6,038 nt of DNA. It comes from Sphingopyxis sp. Lineage in GTDB: Bacteria > Pseudomonadota > Alphaproteobacteria > Sphingomonadales > Sphingomonadaceae. The stretch is taken from the NCBI GenBank assembly GCA_012035435.1, contig JAAUPH010000159.1:1-6038 (forward strand). The letters run 5' to 3'. Shown piece by piece: positions 1,575 through 5,762 of this stretch. Position 1 is the first letter of the stretch. Each line of letters starts with the position of its first letter. A program made the position numbers and the translations under genes. The notes under the pieces are model-generated. The model was not told the DNA's origin, did no database searches, and saw nothing but the letters and a program-made list of their open reading frames with translations.

Positions 1575-1594
1575 TGGAGCGGGTGAAGGGAATC
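1575..1594. repeat. att core, left copy (displaced tRNA-Gly 3' end)
   Basis: TGGAGCGGGTGAAGGGAATC is identical to the last 20 bases of the tRNA-Gly gene (complement strand), comprising CCA, discriminator base, acceptor 3' strand and part of the T arm. Identity stops at both sides: A versus G at the base before, T versus G at the base after. No D arm or anticodon arm is present here, so this is not a second tRNA. It marks the chromosome-element junction behind the lacI-type gene. Confidence 0.85.
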
Positions 1595-1609
1595 TGCTCC
1601 CTTTTTCAC
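1584..1609 (+). terminator. Putative rho-independent terminator of the lacI-type gene
   Basis: AGGGA (1587-1591) pairs with TCCCT (1598-1602) around a 6-nt loop, and a run of five T follows (1602-1606). The outer bases GTGA and TCAC extend the stem with a small bulge. The left arm belongs to the displaced tRNA 3' end, while the right arm and T-run lie inside the mobile element, so the hairpin spans the att junction. It lies 24 bp after the lacI stop on the same strand. On the other strand there is no U-tract after the stem. Confidence 0.5.
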
Positions 1610-1629
1610 TCATTCTCAAGTAACTGTTT

Positions 1630-1764
1630 CTACACGCTTTTATAAGCATCCAAGCGCCATTGTGCACAACTGTGTGCGCAGGTCAATGCGCAAGTGATCA
1701 TTGCCACTTTAAGTTCAGGCGCGGCCGCAGCGTTTGCACTTTGTAGCTCGGCCTCGAACTTCAC
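1630..1764 (-). CDS. Small 44-aa ORF coupled to the relaxase stop (doubtful)
   Basis: A GTG codon at 1764-1762 overlaps the relaxase TGA in a GTGA arrangement typical of translational coupling, with GAGGG four bases upstream as ribosome binding site. The reading frame gives 44 residues, from KFEAELQSANAAAAPELK through CALTCAHSCAQWR to a TAG at 1632-1630. The C-rich CAxx pattern comes from the 12-bp repeat array, because 12 bp equals four codons, and the same CAHSCA peptide would be read from the right array. This makes coding by chance quite possible. I do not recognise the product. No membrane segment or domain is apparent. Confidence 0.25.
   Translation of the reverse strand: MKFEAELQSANAAAAPELKVAMITCALTCAHSCAQWRLDAYKSV
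1661..1692. repeat. Left array of three 12-bp-spaced TGCRCA units (putative arm-type sites)
   Basis: Hexamers TGCACA, TGCGCA and TGCGCA start at 1663, 1675 and 1687, a strict 12-bp period. The stretch 1661-1681 matches 4788-4808 near the other end of the element at 20 of 21 positions, in direct orientation. The array begins 68 bp inside the left att core. Its match in spacing and distance to the right array suggests integrase or excisionase arm binding sites; iterons for a replication protein are the alternative. Confidence 0.6.
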
Positions 1765-3797
1765 CGACCCTCAGATTTGTCGAGTTGTGCCATCGCTGCG
1801 GCAATTCCAGACTTCTGCACATCCAGCTGCTGCTTCCGCTCGGGCCGCAATGTCTCGATCTCCGCCGCAATATCTTGAAGCTTATCGCCCGCGATCTGCG
1901 CCGCAGCTCTCATACTCTGGGCGGAAACAGCCAGCCGCACCACGGCAAGCGTATTTTCTGAGACGGGGCGGCCGTAGTTGACCGTTGCCTCGGCCCAACC
2001 GTCTGCCCGCTTGAACAACAGTCGCTCGTCCACAAATTTGACCTCGAGCCGCCCGCTTACAACATCGTGTAACAGCTTTCGCTCAGCCTGCGCCTGAGCC
2101 TTAGCCGTGTCAATTCGCGTGGTATCGAGTTCAATGGTAGATTTCTCGTGCTCGAGCTTCTGAAAGTCGCGCCAGTGCTGGTCTTTCGCTTGCACGAGCG
2201 CCTCCTCGCGCCGCTTCAGCTCGGCAGTCGTGGCAATTTGATCGATACGTTCCTGCACGGTTTTTTGGTGTTCGGCGTCTAATGCCGTCCGCCGCTGAAC
2301 AAGCATTTCCTTCTGTCGGCTCAGGTCATCGGCCACGGAGAGCAAATTCTTCTCGGCGCCGAGAACAGCTTCTTCCCGCTTCGACACTTCGGCACGCTGC
2401 TCAACCGTTCGGTGCTGTAGGGCCTCGGTCTCAAGCGCAGTATTGCGCATAGCTCTTTCGCGGGCCTCTAATTTATCATGCAGCGTTATCGTTTCCTGTT
2501 CACGCCGCCGGATGACAGCGGATTGCGCGTCCAGCAGCGCGGTGCGCTTTGCAACCGCAAGCTCGCGCGTCCGCACCTGCACTAAGCGCGCTCGCATCCG
2601 TTGGAACAAGATCGCTAGCCGTTGCCGTGATCGGCGTGTGTGCAGAATCAGCGATTTGATCAAGCGCATAGGCTCGGACCATGTGGTTGCCGCCACCCGC
2701 CGTTCATCTGGAGTTTTTGCAACTGCGGCACTGTCTGCGGACAGCGGTTCGCGGGGATCAGCGTGACGACGAAGCAGGCGGAACTGCACTTCATGGTCGG
2801 CCATTTGCTTCGCAAGAGCAATTTGCTGGCCTGCTAGGTCATTTTCTCGAAGCGTGAGATCAGCCGCTTGTCGTTTCGTGGCCTGCTCAACGTCTGACAA
2901 CTTTTTCGCGCGCGCTTGGATTTCGATTTCGCGTTGAGCCGCAGTAGCCTCTGCAAGCGCCAGTTGATCCCTTCGCGATTGGGCGGCGGCTTGTTCGTTT
3001 TCGAGAAGGCCAACGTCGCGCGTAAATTCCAGGACCCGGAATTCGAGTTCGGCCTCGGCGCGGGCCAGCCTCTCTCTTCTCTCGATCAGCTCGGCTTCCT
3101 GGTTATCAAGCTTTGTCTGCCGAGCGTCCAGCTGCTCTCGATACTCCTTTAACGGAGTATGGCGTTTGCCCTGGCCAACCGAATCTTCACCCCGGGCCAG
3201 GCCAAAATGCTCTACTGCGCGGTGATAGGAAGTCTGGAGGTCGCGGAACGCGCAACGGCCGCTACCCATCACGCGGTCGTAGGATTGACGCCACACTTTC
3301 GGCGCTTCCAGCTCCTCCTTTTTGCGTCTGGCCTCTCCCTCCAGTGTTGCTGGCTTGGCGCCACGCTTGCGCACGATGTCCTTGTAAACCGGCAGGCAAA
3401 TGGCGTGGATGTGCGGCGTGCTCTCATCAAGATGGAGCGTAGCCGAAATCAAGCCGGGGCCGTGCTTCTTGCGCAAGAAGGCAAGATTGCAGTCAACCCA
3501 ATCTTGCTGCATCTTGGGATCTATGCCGTGGAACCATTCGGGGGAGGCAGAGATGACGTACTCCACGGCAGTCACTTTGGCCGGGTCCGGTTTCAAGCCG
3601 AGCGAATTAAGCGTTCGCTTCGCATGTTGGGCCACCGAGATGGGTCCGCGCGGTATCAGTTCGATGGGCGGTGGACGGCCTTCGATCGTCGAGCTTACCC
3701 GCTGGTCGCGCACATTGTGGCGGCTGGCCTCGATCAAGTCAGACCAAGTCTTGAGGCGTTCGCAGCGCACGATGGCGTAAAGCTTTTTTTCAGTCAT
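1761..3797 (-). CDS. MobV-family (Mob_Pre) relaxase with long coiled-coil tail
   Basis: This 678-aa mobilisation protein would nick one strand at oriT and lead it into a recipient. The start chosen is the ATG at 3797-3795, with GAGGG close upstream; a longer frame to 3839 adds 14 residues with no good start context. The catalytic domain is about residues 1-220. It has HNVR at 27-30, matching the HNxR motif whose first His is the nucleophile in MobM of pMV158, and HLDESTPHIH at 122-131, the HxDExxPHxH metal-binding motif. LARGEDSVGQGKRH near 200-213 matches the family's RG..GS..KH region. From about 220 to 600 the protein is almost entirely heptad-rich E/R/Q/A helix, broken near 345-375, and it ends with a short mixed tail. 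Family members are usually some 400-500 aa, so the tail is unusually long. It is the only enzyme recognised in the element. Pre proteins are also known for plasmid recombination at their recognition sites, so a role in recombination cannot be excluded. Confidence 0.92.
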   Translation of the reverse strand: MTEKKLYAIVRCERLKTWSDLIEASRHNVRDQRVSSTIEGRPPPIELIPRGPISVAQHAKRTLNSLGLKPDPAKVTAVEYVISASPEWFHGIDPKMQQDWVDCNLAFLRKKHGPGLISATLHLDESTPHIHAICLPVYKDIVRKRGAKPATLEGEARRKKEELEAPKVWRQSYDRVMGSGRCAFRDLQTSYHRAVEHFGLARGEDSVGQGKRHTPLKEYREQLDARQTKLDNQEAELIERRERLARAEAELEFRVLEFTRDVGLLENEQAAAQSRRDQLALAEATAAQREIEIQARAKKLSDVEQATKRQAADLTLRENDLAGQQIALAKQMADHEVQFRLLRRHADPREPLSADSAAVAKTPDERRVAATTWSEPMRLIKSLILHTRRSRQRLAILFQRMRARLVQVRTRELAVAKRTALLDAQSAVIRRREQETITLHDKLEARERAMRNTALETEALQHRTVEQRAEVSKREEAVLGAEKNLLSVADDLSRQKEMLVQRRTALDAEHQKTVQERIDQIATTAELKRREEALVQAKDQHWRDFQKLEHEKSTIELDTTRIDTAKAQAQAERKLLHDVVSGRLEVKFVDERLLFKRADGWAEATVNYGRPVSENTLAVVRLAVSAQSMRAAAQIAGDKLQDIAAEIETLRPERKQQLDVQKSGIAAAMAQLDKSEGR

Positions 3798-3824
3798 GTC
3801 CCTCAATCCGGATAGGTCATTACA

Positions 3825-3853
3825 ATTTCGACAGTTCACTCACTCTGGGTCAA
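3825..3853 (-). promoter_or_regulatory. Candidate promoter of the relaxase gene
   Basis: On the leftward strand TTGACC (3853-3848) is a good -35 element. A 17-bp spacer separates it from CGAAAT (3830-3825), a weak -10. The relaxase ATG follows 28 bp later at 3797. The -35 hexamer lies inside one arm of the 10-bp inverted repeat at 3847-3869, so a protein bound to the palindrome would block it. The call rests on hexamer similarity and spacing only. Confidence 0.35.
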
Positions 3854-3869
3854 TTCTCTGAATTGACCC
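3847..3869. repeat. Perfect 10+3+10 bp palindrome upstream of the relaxase (oriT or operator candidate)
   Basis: GGGTCAATTC and GAATTGACCC are perfect reverse complements separated by TCT. In MobV plasmids such as pMV158, oriT is an inverted-repeat region directly upstream of mob that overlaps its promoter, and the relaxase represses its own gene there. The position 50 bp before the relaxase start and the overlap with the TTGACC hexamer fit that model. I see no certain match to a known MobV nick sequence, so oriT is an inference. Confidence 0.5.
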
Positions 3870-3902
3870 CGTTCGCTGCACGTCGCGACCGTGCATGGGT
3901 GG

Positions 3903-3953
3903 CCCTTTGCTTGCGCGGCGGGCCAGCATCGTCGCCAGACGATGCGCAAAGGG
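3903..3953. repeat. Nested hairpin 1 of the structured block
   Basis: CCCTTTGC (3903-3910) pairs with GCAAAGGG (3946-3953). Inside it GCATCGTC (3926-3933) pairs with GACGATGC (3938-3945) around a GCCA loop. The two stems stack without a gap on the right-hand side and leave a 15-nt bulge (3911-3925) on the left. Sixteen perfect base pairs in 51 nt is well beyond chance expectation. Part of the bulge can pair with 3969-3975. Confidence 0.7.
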
Positions 3954-3974
3954 CAGCGCCAATGACCGGCGCAA

Positions 3975-4067
3975 GCCAGCAGGCGATTGCAGCCGCGTTC
4001 GCGGGACCAACATGATCCAGAGCCATCCGAGTGGATGGCGGGATCATGTCGGGCAATCGCTGTTGGC
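3975..4067. repeat. Branched palindrome 2 of the structured block
   Basis: The outer stem is GCGATTGC (3983-3990) with GCAATCGC (4053-4060). It extends outward through GCCAGCA/TGTTGGC (3975-3981 with 4061-4067) with one bulge and one G.T pair. Inside are a small hairpin CCGCG-TT-CGCGG (3993-4004) and a long arm: CATGATCC (4011-4018) with GGATCATG (4041-4048), then CCATCC (4023-4028) with GGATGG (4033-4038) around GAGT. The result is a three-way-junction fold. Confidence 0.7.
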
Positions 4068-4072
4068 CAAAG

Positions 4073-4087
4073 CGGCACGTCGTGCCG
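4073..4087. repeat. 15-bp palindrome 3 of the structured block
   Basis: CGGCACG and CGTGCCG are perfect reverse complements around a single T. As DNA it could bind a dimer. As a single strand the one-base centre would open to a small loop. Confidence 0.6.
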
Positions 4088-4113
4088 TCCGCCCGCTCAA
4101 ACGGTCGGTTAGG

Positions 4114-4131
4114 AGCGCCGGGTCCGGCGCT
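4114..4131. repeat. 18-bp palindrome 4 of the structured block
   Basis: AGCGCCGG (4114-4121) and CCGGCGCT (4124-4131) are perfect reverse complements separated by GT. No T-run follows on either strand, so a rho-independent terminator is unlikely. Confidence 0.6.
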
Positions 4132-4163
4132 GCATCCCCCCTGCGCGGCCGCCATGGGCGGGA

Positions 4164-4209
4164 TCGATATGTGCTGAGACCGGCCATTCGGCCGGTCGGC
4201 ACATATCGA
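4164..4209. repeat. 46-nt near-perfect hairpin 5 of the structured block
   Basis: TCGATATGTGC (4164-4174) pairs with GCACATATCGA (4199-4209). Inside it GACCGGCC (4178-4185) pairs with GGCCGGTC (4190-4197) around ATTC. The only unpaired bases are an internal TGA against G and the 4-nt loop, giving 19 base pairs. It lies 46 bp beyond the 155-aa gene's stop codon (on the leftward strand) and is the strongest single stem-loop in the window. Confidence 0.75.
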
Positions 4210-4244
4210 GCGCAAGGGGAAAGCATGGCGGACGATCACAGCCA

Positions 4245-4263
4245 CGTTCTGCACGTCAGAACG
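4245..4263 (-). repeat. Inverted repeat over the stop codon of the 155-aa gene
   Basis: CGTTCTG (4245-4251) and CAGAACG (4257-4263) are perfect reverse complements with a 5-nt loop. The TGA of the 155-aa gene is inside the structure. No U-tract follows leftward, so it may protect or attenuate the transcript rather than end it. It could instead be part of the adjoining structured block. Confidence 0.45.
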
Positions 4264-4723
4264 GGACTTCATCATCGGCCGCTACGCGGCTCACTGGAGT
4301 GGCAAGTGTGGGGTTTTCCCAGTGATCGGACGCGCTCGCTTCTTGCTCGCGTGCAATCTCTTCCATGTCCTCAACGGTCAGGGTGACGGATCCGTCGATT
4401 GCCCGCGCGCTGCGGTCGTCATCGTCCCAATCATATGTGACCTGACGATGGGACAGTTTGCCGCCTGCCCGAAGAAGCGCCAATTCGCCGCGCGCCATGT
4501 CGCGCTCTTGCGACACCGACGCCAACCGGGTTTCAAGTTCGATGATCTTCCTGTTGATGTCGGCGGCGTGCCAGTTTCGCGCCAACTCCGCCAACTCGTC
4601 CCATCGATCAGGTGCACGCACTGGATCGAATGGAGTTCGGCTGGCCTCGTATAAATCTGAATTCAGCCGGATGAGGGCAGCATAGGTCTCAAGGCTGCCC
4701 TGATTGTTGAACGCCTCGCGCAT
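4256..4723 (-). CDS. 155-aa element protein of unknown family, coiled coil and SSB-like acidic tail
   Basis: I do not recognise the family. The frame is open far upstream through the tRNA, but 4723 is the first ATG past the tRNA and no GTG or TTG lies between. The Shine-Dalgarno is weak (GCGCGAG). Residues about 1-60 are mixed and probably helical, with aromatic and acidic content. About 60-90 (NRKIIELETRLASVSQERDM) is a short coiled coil. Then come an acidic patch, TYDWDDDD, a second helical segment (VEDMEEIAREQEA) and a disordered tail ending ADDEVPF. That end resembles the DDxPF tip of bacterial SSB, which docks PriA, RecO, Exo I and the Pol III chi subunit, but there is no OB fold here. 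The gene sits between the right arm-site array and the structured block, in the same direction as the relaxase and tRNA. It may be an accessory to transfer, excision or replication. The CDS call is supported by amino-acid composition and length. Confidence 0.75.
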   Translation of the reverse strand: MREAFNNQGSLETYAALIRLNSDLYEASRTPFDPVRAPDRWDELAELARNWHAADINRKIIELETRLASVSQERDMARGELALLRAGGKLSHRQVTYDWDDDDRSARAIDGSVTLTVEDMEEIAREQEASASDHWENPTLATPVSRVAADDEVPF

Positions 4724-4775
4724 CTCGCGCGCAGAGGGTAGGCGTTTGTGCTGCCCGTAACCCCCACGCCAAGCT

Positions 4776-4808
4776 GGTGCACAGTCGTGTGCACAGCTGT
4801 GTGCGCAG
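4776..4808. repeat. Right array of three 12-bp-spaced TGCRCA units (putative arm-type sites)
   Basis: Hexamers TGCACA, TGCACA and TGCGCA start at 4778, 4790 and 4802, again at strict 12-bp period and in the same direction as the left array. The array ends 67 bp before the right att core. It also lies 55 bp upstream of the 155-aa start, so binding there could regulate that gene. The presence of a matching array at the other end, where no promoter is needed, favours an att-arm role. Confidence 0.6.
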
Positions 4809-4874
4809 CGAAGATTCGCGGCAGCCTTCGGATGCGCCCGAAAGCGTTGCAGATCAAAGACTTGATACGAAAAG

Positions 4875-4894
4875 TGGAGCGGGTGAAGGGAATC
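4875..4894. repeat. att core, right copy (3' end of the intact tRNA-Gly)
   Basis: This is the second copy of TGGAGCGGGTGAAGGGAATC. It forms the 3' part of the working tRNA gene, so in the integrated state the tRNA's last 20 bases would be supplied by the element. Confidence 0.85.
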
Positions 4895-4948
4895 GAACCC
4901 TCGTCGTAAGCTTGGGAAGCTTCTGCTCTGCCATTGAGCTACACCCGC
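4875..4948 (-). tRNA. tRNA-Gly (anticodon CCC), CCA encoded
   Basis: The complement strand folds as a complete 74-nt tRNA. The acceptor GCGGGTG pairs with CACCCGC, the D stem is GCTC/GAGC, and the T arm is GAGGG-TTCGATT-CCCTT, followed by discriminator T and an encoded CCA. The anticodon loop TTCCCAA gives CCC, reading GGG glycine codons. The first anticodon-stem pair is a G.A mismatch, leaving four good pairs. All parts are present, so the gene appears functional despite the insertion at its 3' end. No rho-independent terminator follows it before the 155-aa gene. Confidence 0.95.
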
Positions 4949-5157: not shown

Positions 5158-5762
5158 ATGCCGCATCCCACGATCTTTGCACGACCGCTTGAAGACGAGC
5201 TTCGCGGGATGATTGCTGCTCCTGATTTCCCTTGCGTGGGCGCGAGGCGATATCGAACGGTCGCACCTTTGATTATGAAGAAACGATCAAGCTGACGACC
5301 GGCAATATGCTGTGGTCGAATCGGTCCAAACCGCTGCTGGAAATTGTCGAGGATAGCGTGGGCGTGCATGACTTTTTGCTGACGCCGTGCAGCGCCGATA
5401 CATTTCGGCATTTCTATCCTGACAAGCCTGAACATCGCGGCTGTTTCGGCAACCTGGTCGAAGCGCTGGCGCCTTATGGGATTGATGCCGACGCGCTGCC
5501 GTACGCCTTCAACCTGTTCATGAATGTCCCGGTGGAAGCGACCAGCGGCCGGGTGAGCGTATTGCCGCCGGTGACCAAGAGCGGGGATTATATTCGGCTA
5601 CGCGCGCTCACCGATTTGGTCGTCGGACTGACCGCCTGTTCGGCCTATGCCTCAAACGGCGGAACGTTCAAGCCGATCGATTATCGGGTCGATCCCGGCG
5701 AACTTGATGCGCCGGGATTTCGGCCGTTGGCGGCAACGGCGGCGGGGGGGCGACGATTCTGA
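5158..5762 (+). pseudogene. Broken DUF1989 (urea carboxylase-associated family) gene with out-of-frame N-terminal segment
   Basis: From 5232 one frame encodes a clear DUF1989 core: NGRTFDYEETIKLTTG, LWSNRSKPLLEIVEDSVG, HDFLLTPCS, FNLFMNVPV, SGDYIRLRA, LTACSAYASNGGTFKPIDY. This frame has a TGA at 5223-5225 and no good start. A second frame opens at the ATG at 5158 and reads MPHPTIFARPLEDELRGMIA then APDFPCVGAR before leaving the theme and stopping at 5293-5295. The two readings meet near 5245. FPCVGA resembles the N-terminal motif of YqcI/YcgG (GntA-type) proteins, so the gene may be an internal deletion that joined two domains. A single missing base would also make one continuous protein. DUF1989 proteins usually have a further N-terminal part before NGRTxDY, which is absent here. 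Conserved His/Cys (H46, C53, C71 and C136 counted from 5232) remain. A 7-G run lies near the 3' end. Biochemical function is not established for this lineage. Confidence 0.7.

What the first reader, a model, noticed from the sequence alone, without database searches (positions are those of the whole stretch)
1575..4894. A 3.3-kb tRNA-Gly-integrated element with a relaxase but no integrase
Two identical 20-bp repeats exactly 3300 bp apart, one being the 3' end of an intact tRNA and the other an orphan copy, are seen directly. They define attL/attR. Known integrative mobilisable elements normally carry a tyrosine integrase; this one has no space for one. It would be an extreme minimal form, in effect a satellite that depends on a foreign integrase and a foreign conjugation apparatus while keeping its own relaxase. 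I do not know of a described element of this make-up.
Basis: partly seen in the sequence, partly recalled or inferred. Interest (0 to 1): 0.85.

Follow-up and report, generated by a model that had tools for sequence, protein, structure and literature searches.

The report
Integrase-less mobilizable tRNA-Gly element remnant
A 3.3-kb stretch of DNA, probably from a sphingomonad bacterium, has the docking sites and the DNA-transfer starter of a mobile element but no enzyme to insert or remove it, so it could move only if another element lends that enzyme, or not at all.

Summary
An exact 20-bp repeat (1575-1594, 4875-4894) is the 3' end of an intact tRNA-Gly(CCC) plus an orphan copy; no integrase was found between them. 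The interior carries an intact MobV-type relaxase, a conserved oriT-like hairpin and a small ORF. New here: repeats TGTGCACA[A/G]CTGTGTGCGCAG lie exactly 66 bp inside each core, the layout of integrase arm sites; similar paired repeats occur in three of five comparison islands. The small ORF lacks the first 17 codons of its closest relative and its homology stops 10 bp from the arm repeats, so I read a deletion that removed the ORF start and, by inference, the integrase. The three closest genomic relatives of the relaxase sit at tRNA-Pro with an integrase-like protein of about 700 aa; a fourth, partial relative (G131) showed neither nearby. Four other sphingomonad genomes carry islands at tRNA-Gly(CCC) with the same core, one with a clear P4-type integrase. 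Best reading: an IME reduced to att sites + oriT + relaxase, between IME and CIME. Present mobility by a borrowed integrase is not shown: no convincing match to the arm site in 397 sphingomonad genomes. New variant of a known kind.

The parts
1575..1594 (.). orphan 20-bp core copy (att end away from the tRNA)
   Evidence: exact repeat of 4875-4894; no tRNA there
1661..1681 (+). inner arm-like repeat TGTGCACAACTGTGTGCGCAG, 66 bp from the core
   Evidence: arm function inferred
1761..3797 (-). MobV-type relaxase (678 aa, stop codon 1761-1763), HLDESTPHIH motif intact
   Evidence: MobM of the PDB matched over residues 75-137
3837..3869 (-). oriT-like hairpin GGGTCAATTC-AGA-GAATTGACCC followed by GAGTGAGTG
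   Evidence: conserved upstream of mob in window, L001, L002, L003 with two paired changes in the stem; nicking not tested
4164..4209 (.). second inverted repeat between small ORF and mob (function unknown)
   Evidence: I17
4256..4723 (-). small ORF, 155 aa from ATG 4723, 5'-truncated against P0015; C-terminus DDEVPF
4766..4775 (.). presumed deletion junction: homology to P0015 ends at 4765 (its residue 18), arm repeats begin at 4776
   Evidence: junction inferred
4776..4808 (+). arm-like repeats, two overlapping copies at 12-bp period (4776-4796, 4788-4808), 66 bp from the core
   Evidence: arm function inferred
4875..4894 (.). 20-bp core inside the tRNA
4875..4948 (-). tRNA-Gly(CCC), intact, attachment gene

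Best explanation
A decayed integrative and mobilizable element. A tyrosine integrase once inserted a circular element into the 3' end of tRNA-Gly(CCC), giving two 20-bp cores (shown: the two cores; inferred: the event). The integrase recognised the core plus arm sites 66 bp to either side (shown: repeats and symmetry; inferred: that they are arm sites). A later deletion ended beside the left arm repeats and removed the start of the small ORF and, with it, the integrase gene (truncation shown against a relative; integrase removal inferred). What remains is core - arm repeats - small ORF - oriT - relaxase - arm repeat - core. It could still be nicked at oriT by its own relaxase, but could excise only if an integrase of the same specificity is supplied in trans, for example by another tRNA-Gly(CCC) element; otherwise it is fixed.
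For: Cores and tRNA. Arm-like repeats at 66/66 bp, the only 12-mers (<=1 mismatch) shared by the two 260-bp ends. The same test on the integrase-bearing relative L001 gives CTAGCCATTTC 77 and 87 bp inside its cores; islands G016 and G030 also show paired direct repeats, G016's in a 12-bp period. oriT conserved with compensatory changes. Relaxase intact and the same length (678 aa) as a 76% relative. The P0015 alignment to the window starts at residue 18 = nt 4765, 10 bp from the arms. Relatives L001, L002 and L120/L003 sit at tRNA-Pro with related integrase-like proteins of about 700 aa. Islands with the same core at tRNA-Gly(CCC): G016, G095, G030, G265.
Against: No relative was found with the same arms and an integrase, so the ancestral integrase is not identified. 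The integrase-like proteins known with this mob module are beside tRNA-Pro, not tRNA-Gly, so a module exchange is also needed; in Pfam they match only DUF6538 weakly, not Phage_integrase. Two comparison islands (G265, G095) did not show paired arm repeats by my tests. One relaxase relative, G131 (N-terminal match), has no L001-type integrase and no tRNA in the 20 kb fetched. The truncated ORF may still work: L001's version naturally lacks the N-terminal part. The nearest relatives of relaxase and small ORF lie on short metagenome contigs (3461, 3806, 3488 bp) that I could not read.
Confidence: 0.58

Rival explanations
1. A maintained double satellite: it keeps only the sites that an integrase and a transfer system need plus its own relaxase, and spreads by borrowing an integrase from one element and a conjugation pore from another.
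For: Both arms, both cores, oriT and relaxase are present and look intact while little else is left. tRNA-Gly(CCC) is used by other sphingomonad islands with the same core, one (G016, 21-bp core) with a P4-type integrase, so helpers of a fitting core specificity exist. A 23.4-kb island at the same site without a recognised integrase (G095) shows that integrase-lacking residents occur there.
Against: No helper with the same arm repeat: 1 of 397 genomes within 2 mismatches, with no tRNA in its 3-kb locus, and 0 of 397 with a loose arm motif beside the tRNA. No second copy of this minimal form was found. The truncated ORF points to recent loss.
Confidence: 0.22
2. Left behind by a tandem array: the element and an integrase-bearing neighbour once shared the tRNA-Gly site, and the neighbour left or decayed.
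For: Tandem accretion with decayed members is described for such sites in streptococci (PMC7563491, passages). The lacI side is not shared with six relatives at the same tRNA locus, so more foreign DNA may lie beyond the window.
Against: Only one orphan copy is in the window, and the window ends 1.6 kb beyond it; nothing positive shows a former neighbour.
Confidence: 0.13
3. Chance repeat, tRNA-duplication scar or assembly artefact.
For: Repeated arrays of the 20-mer and second tRNA-Gly genes sharing it exist in the family.
Against: The repeat has the same 20-bp core as four other islands and stops at the tRNA 3' end, and there are symmetric arm repeats; rough chance expectation 3e-5 for the core and 1e-6 for the inner pair in 200-bp end windows, equal base frequencies.
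Confidence: 0.04

Closest known systems
Erythrobacter oryzae L001 element at tRNA-Pro (found here, 11.2 kb between cores)
   Same: Same relaxase family (37-40% identity), same oriT motif, homologous small ORF, att core of 21 bp at the tRNA 3' end, paired arm-like repeats
   Different: Has its own 694-aa integrase-like gene and methyltransferase/nuclease-like cargo; different tRNA; different arm sequence
CIME (cis-mobilizable element; definition in passages of PMC5704250 and PMC7563491)
   Same: att sites kept, integrase lost
   Different: A CIME has also lost its transfer/mobilisation genes; this keeps relaxase and oriT
dIME (decayed IME, criteria in passages of PMC7563491)
   Same: IME-like element with a signature protein missing
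   Different: Little: this is the best label; what stands out is the size (3.3 kb) and how cleanly only the integrase side is gone
MITE and CALIN (recombinase-less hitchers, PMC11389934 passages)
   Same: Keep recombinase sites, lost the recombinase, could be moved in trans
   Different: Neither carries a relaxase (recalled); movement here would need two helpers
G016 16.2-kb island at tRNA-Gly(CCC) (unnamed sphingomonad genome)
   Same: Same core (21 bp), arm repeats of 12-bp period near both ends
   Different: Carries a 410-aa P4-type integrase; arm sequence TTGGGGGTATC

Membership tests
IME (integrative and mobilizable element) | encodes its own integration/excision | tested here: not met
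   no integrase by Pfam on 10 interior ORFs, main ORFs, tblastn with four integrases or integrase-like proteins
IME (integrative and mobilizable element) | relaxase and/or oriT, no mating-pore genes | tested here: met
   no other Pfam family inside above its cut-off; no dedicated T4SS search was run
IME (integrative and mobilizable element) | flanked by att repeats at a target gene | tested here: met
IME (integrative and mobilizable element) | excises and transfers | not testable with these tools
   needs circle PCR and matings
CIME | attL and attR retained, recombination genes lost | tested here: met
CIME | conjugation/mobilisation genes lost | tested here: not met
   intact relaxase and conserved oriT
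[quoted passage not shown]
   integrase not found while the relaxase is present
MobV relaxase family | Mob_Pre domain with the HxDExTPHxH motif (motif recalled) | tested here: met
   Mob_Pre 52.9 bits, cut-off 25.5; HLDESTPHIH in the alignment and its counterpart in 4lvi; but NCBIfam MobV 91.6, below cut-off 100
Tyrosine-integrase attachment site with arm-type sites | core flanked by arm repeats on both sides | tested here: met
   66/66 bp symmetric repeats
Tyrosine-integrase attachment site with arm-type sites | an integrase binds the arms and recombines the core | not testable with these tools
   no cognate integrase identified

The most novel reading that the evidence does not exclude
A miniature, relaxase-carrying hyperparasite: att arms and cores recognised by the integrase of a co-resident tRNA-Gly(CCC) element, plus its own oriT and relaxase to ride a third element's pore. 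It would be a conjugative counterpart of a MITE or CALIN and, at 3.3 kb, smaller than any self-integrating IME I can recall.
Probability: 0.2. Interest if true: 0.68.

Novelty: new variant of a known kind. Interest (0 to 1): 0.42.

Why it matters
It is an unusually clean intermediate between an autonomous IME and a CIME: integrase gone, both att sites with arms, oriT and relaxase apparently intact. Such forms are easily missed by surveys that start from integrases; PMC7563491 (passages) says its method could not detect single CIMEs, and names one earlier survey, in Streptococcus agalactiae, that counted CIMEs alone or in tandem at one tRNA-Lys gene. If excision in trans works, it shows how recombinase-less hitchers can arise among conjugative elements as MITEs and CALINs do among transposons and integrons.

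Tried and rejected
Plasmid origin: the 20 best of 133 plasmid records matching the element DNA match only at the tRNA, and relaxase matches are all below 60% identity (494 of 494 records, 424 of 424). The two 4394-bp-spaced core pairs in G231 and G268 looked like small elements but are two tRNA-Gly genes with ordinary genes between. A helper with the same arm repeat: viral contigs exact scan 0; 397 sphingomonad genomes, 1 hit at 2 mismatches, no tRNA in its 3-kb locus; loose arm motif beside tRNA-Gly(CCC) 0 of 397. Empty site through lacI: in the lacI loci I fetched no tRNA was found (L136-L138, L156, L157), and in G006 lacI and tRNA-Gly are about 0.5 Mb apart; in G034 a 43-bp exact piece of the tRNA-Gly lies about 19 kb from lacI on the same contig, not followed. 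Predicted structure of P0015 (single sequence) was too poor to use, mean pLDDT 55.9. Literature on the SSB-like tail gave nothing direct in the 6 of 15 papers listed; on Sphingomonadales IMEs, none of the 10 of 186 listed titles is about such an element; on arm sites, 0 papers.
Full report
Observation. The 20-bp direct repeat at 1575-1594 and 4875-4894 is exact and spaced 3300 bp. Its second copy is the 3' end, CCA included, of an intact tRNA-Gly(CCC) on the minus strand, 4875-4948. The first copy is not part of any tRNA found and lies 15 bp after the lacI stop. The repeat does not extend on either side. Rough chance expectation, equal base frequencies, is 3e-5 for the window.

Interior. On the minus strand, from the tRNA inwards: 66 bp, arm-like repeats, a small ORF (155 aa from ATG 4723), a 0.46-kb spacer with two inverted repeats, and a 678-aa relaxase (1764-3797). 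The relaxase matches Pfam Mob_Pre (52.9 bits, cut-off 25.5) and falls just under the NCBIfam MobV cut-off (91.6 against 100). Its HLDESTPHIH motif is intact, and the stretch around it aligns with MobM in the PDB (4lvi, query residues 75-137, E 0.0015). No integrase was recognised: 10 interior ORFs gave no Pfam family at E<=0.1, the main ORFs none to integrases, and tblastn with four integrases or integrase-like proteins gave nothing in the window at E<=1.

Arm-like repeats. TGTGCACAACTGTGTGCGCAG (1661-1681) and TGTGCACAGCTGTGTGCGCAG (4788-4808), 20 of 21 identical, lie exactly 66 bp inside the two cores; a weaker overlapping copy sits at 4776-4796, giving a 12-bp period. They hold the only 12-mers (<=1 mismatch) shared by the two 260-bp ends. 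In the circular form this is arm-66-core-66-arm. I read it as integrase arm sites by layout. The same test on the integrase-bearing relative L001 gives CTAGCCATTTC 77 bp and 87 bp inside its cores and nothing else. With other settings (11-mers), island G016 shows TTGGGGGTATC repeats in a 12-bp period at both ends, among a few chance-like matches, and G030 shows TGCGGTAAAACTGCGGT at both ends. G265 showed no exact shared 11-mer and G095 only one chance-like inverted match. So 3 of these 5 comparison islands show the pattern.

oriT. The hairpin GGGTCAATTC-AGA-GAATTGACCC followed by GAGTGAGTG (window 3837-3869, minus) recurs upstream of the relaxase in L001, L002 and L003. The last two have two paired changes in the stem that keep it paired. 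A motif scan of all loci then held found it only at these four distinct places (the other rows are re-fetches of the same places), so not in the more distant relaxase loci, G131 (L118) included.

Relatives of the module. The protein search found 13 proteins, the query included: P0002 at 76% and the same length, five at 37-39% over 98%, the rest distant. The scan of GTDB contigs kept the best 80 of 154 loci; three are close (L001 Erythrobacter oryzae over nearly the whole protein; L002 Porphyrobacter MAG and L003 Sphingomonadales MAG over the N-terminal 266 and 322 residues). All three have tRNA-Pro(TGG) with L001's 694-aa integrase-like protein, or one about 41-42% identical to it, beside the tRNA. 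These proteins match DUF6538 weakly in Pfam and not Phage_integrase; L001's and L120's match phrog_1 integrase (9.6e-7 and 4.5e-13); they keep HSIR, MGHA and a downstream Y. L001 has a 21-bp core repeated at 3624 and 14785. For L002 and L120/L003 the far core was not found in the DNA held. In 397 sphingomonad genomes, 9 had any match to the relaxase family and only G001 (the genome of L001) matched over the full length. The next best, G131, matches over the N-terminal 319 positions; in the 20 kb fetched it shows no L001-type integrase and no tRNA, though its ORFs were listed and not scanned with Pfam. It is an exception to the rule that relatives carry an integrase-like gene.

Sign of deletion. 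The small ORF's closest relative, P0015 (190 aa), aligns to the window from residue 18 onward, nt 4765 to 4259, 70.5% identical. The arm repeats begin at 4776. So the first 17 residues of P0015 have no counterpart in that alignment and the arm region lies in their place. This fits a deletion ending beside the arms that took the ORF start and, I infer, the integrase with it. Counter-evidence: L001's homologue naturally lacks that N-terminal part, so the shortened ORF could work; and the integrase-like proteins known with this module are beside tRNA-Pro, so a module exchange must also have happened.

The attachment site in other genomes. The 20-mer was found in 193 of 298 genomes. The place list was cut, so I re-asked for 11 multi-copy genomes. 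Pairs followed: G231 and G268 are two tRNA-Gly genes, not elements; G016 (16.2 kb), G095 (23.4 kb), G030 (30.3 kb) and G265 (42 kb) have tRNA-Gly(CCC) at one end and an orphan at the other. Not followed: arrays in G207 and G255, the 118-bp pair in G019, and far-apart, opposite-strand or different-contig pairs. Cores are 21 (G016), 22 (G095) and 47 bp (G030, G265). G016 has a 410-aa integrase with Arm-DNA-bind_3 and Phage_integrase domains. The 400- and 408-aa proteins beside the tRNA in G030 and G265 match no Pfam model at 1e-5 and no PHROG model at 0.01; I call them integrase-like from position and, for G265, a LGH...Y pattern read by eye. In G095 no integrase was seen: 8 ORFs scanned with Pfam, one of them without any match, and tblastn without a significant match.

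Helper not found. The arm repeat occurs once within 2 mismatches in 397 genomes, with no tRNA in its 3-kb locus. A loose arm motif 55-85 bp from the tRNA-Gly core occurs in 0 of 397. The 18-base core of the pattern is absent from viral contigs.

Host and locus. No host genome is held. LacI relatives reach 79% and the best one named by organism in the 120 listed of 4066 is a Sphingopyxis MAG at 77%, so a sphingomonad host is inferred. In six genomes chosen for their ccmH match, tRNA-Gly(CCC) lies 3.9-4.6 kb from a ccmH 79-84% identical to the window's; in the window they are 0.8 kb apart. None of these six loci contains the relaxase or small ORF at E<=1e-6, and each has one copy of the 20-mer (5 exact, 1 with 3 mismatches) and no orphan. 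This supports an insertion, but lacI is not the neighbour in them, so the exact empty site was not seen.

Mechanism. Shown: cores, symmetric inner repeats, conserved oriT, intact relaxase frame, absence of a recognisable integrase, truncated ORF. Inferred: insertion by a tyrosine integrase, arm-site function, deletion of the integrase, and ability to be nicked. Unshown: any present mobility. PMC5704250 (passages) defines IMEs as encoding their own excision and integration, and CIMEs as having lost integration and transfer genes while keeping att sites. [quoted passage not shown] By these rules it is not an IME, not a full CIME, and fits dIME best. PMC11389934 (passages) describes MITEs and CALINs as hitchers without their own recombinase, the closest functional analogy if it is moved in trans. 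Among the listings seen (12 of 115 papers, 2 of 2, 12 of 15, 12 of 75) I recognised no title describing a solitary relaxase-bearing, integrase-less tRNA element; that is a limited search, not proof of absence.

Going back over the calls I corrected the L001 arm distance, the ccmH distance and the description of the relatives, and added the G131 exception; I left the odds as they were, since none of these changes the balance much.

Noticed in passing
window 4256-4275 (minus); P0015; P0016; L001 up to 9530: The small ORF's C-terminus is acidic and ends DDEVPF or DDIPF in all four members aligned, resembling the tail of bacterial SSB (motif recalled); it may recruit SSB-binding host proteins during ssDNA transfer.
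   Followed up: partly
L001 3789-5870, L120 8569-10593, L002 196-2208: The roughly 700-aa integrase-like proteins keep HSIR, MGHA and a Y, but the usual first-box arginine region reads [ST]HA[AT]LNEIAGL in all three; a divergent tyrosine-recombinase-like group.
   Followed up: partly
L129/L130 (G095), 23.4 kb between tRNA-Gly(CCC) and an orphan core: Island of sulfatases, a TonB receptor, GH3/GH10 enzymes and a LacI regulator with no recognised integrase: another integrase-less resident of the same site.
   Followed up: partly
L118 8351-10705 (G131): A 784-aa relaxase relative in a chromosome-sized contig, with no L001-type integrase and no tRNA in the 20 kb fetched; could be another integrase-less or differently integrated form.
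   Followed up: partly
window 5158-5762: The DUF1989 gene beside the tRNA looks broken or misread: the Pfam match starts at profile position 41, and the start of the protein appears, read by eye, to lie in another frame.
   Followed up: no
G207:C1 1933630-1934168 and G255:C6 44787-45037: Arrays of the tRNA-Gly 3' 20-mer at 173-bp and 77-bp spacing, perhaps tandem tRNA genes.
   Followed up: no
L001 12103-14567: The E. oryzae relative carries an adenine methyltransferase-like and a NucS-like nuclease gene as cargo (all below the curated cut-offs), perhaps a restriction-modification pair.
   Followed up: no
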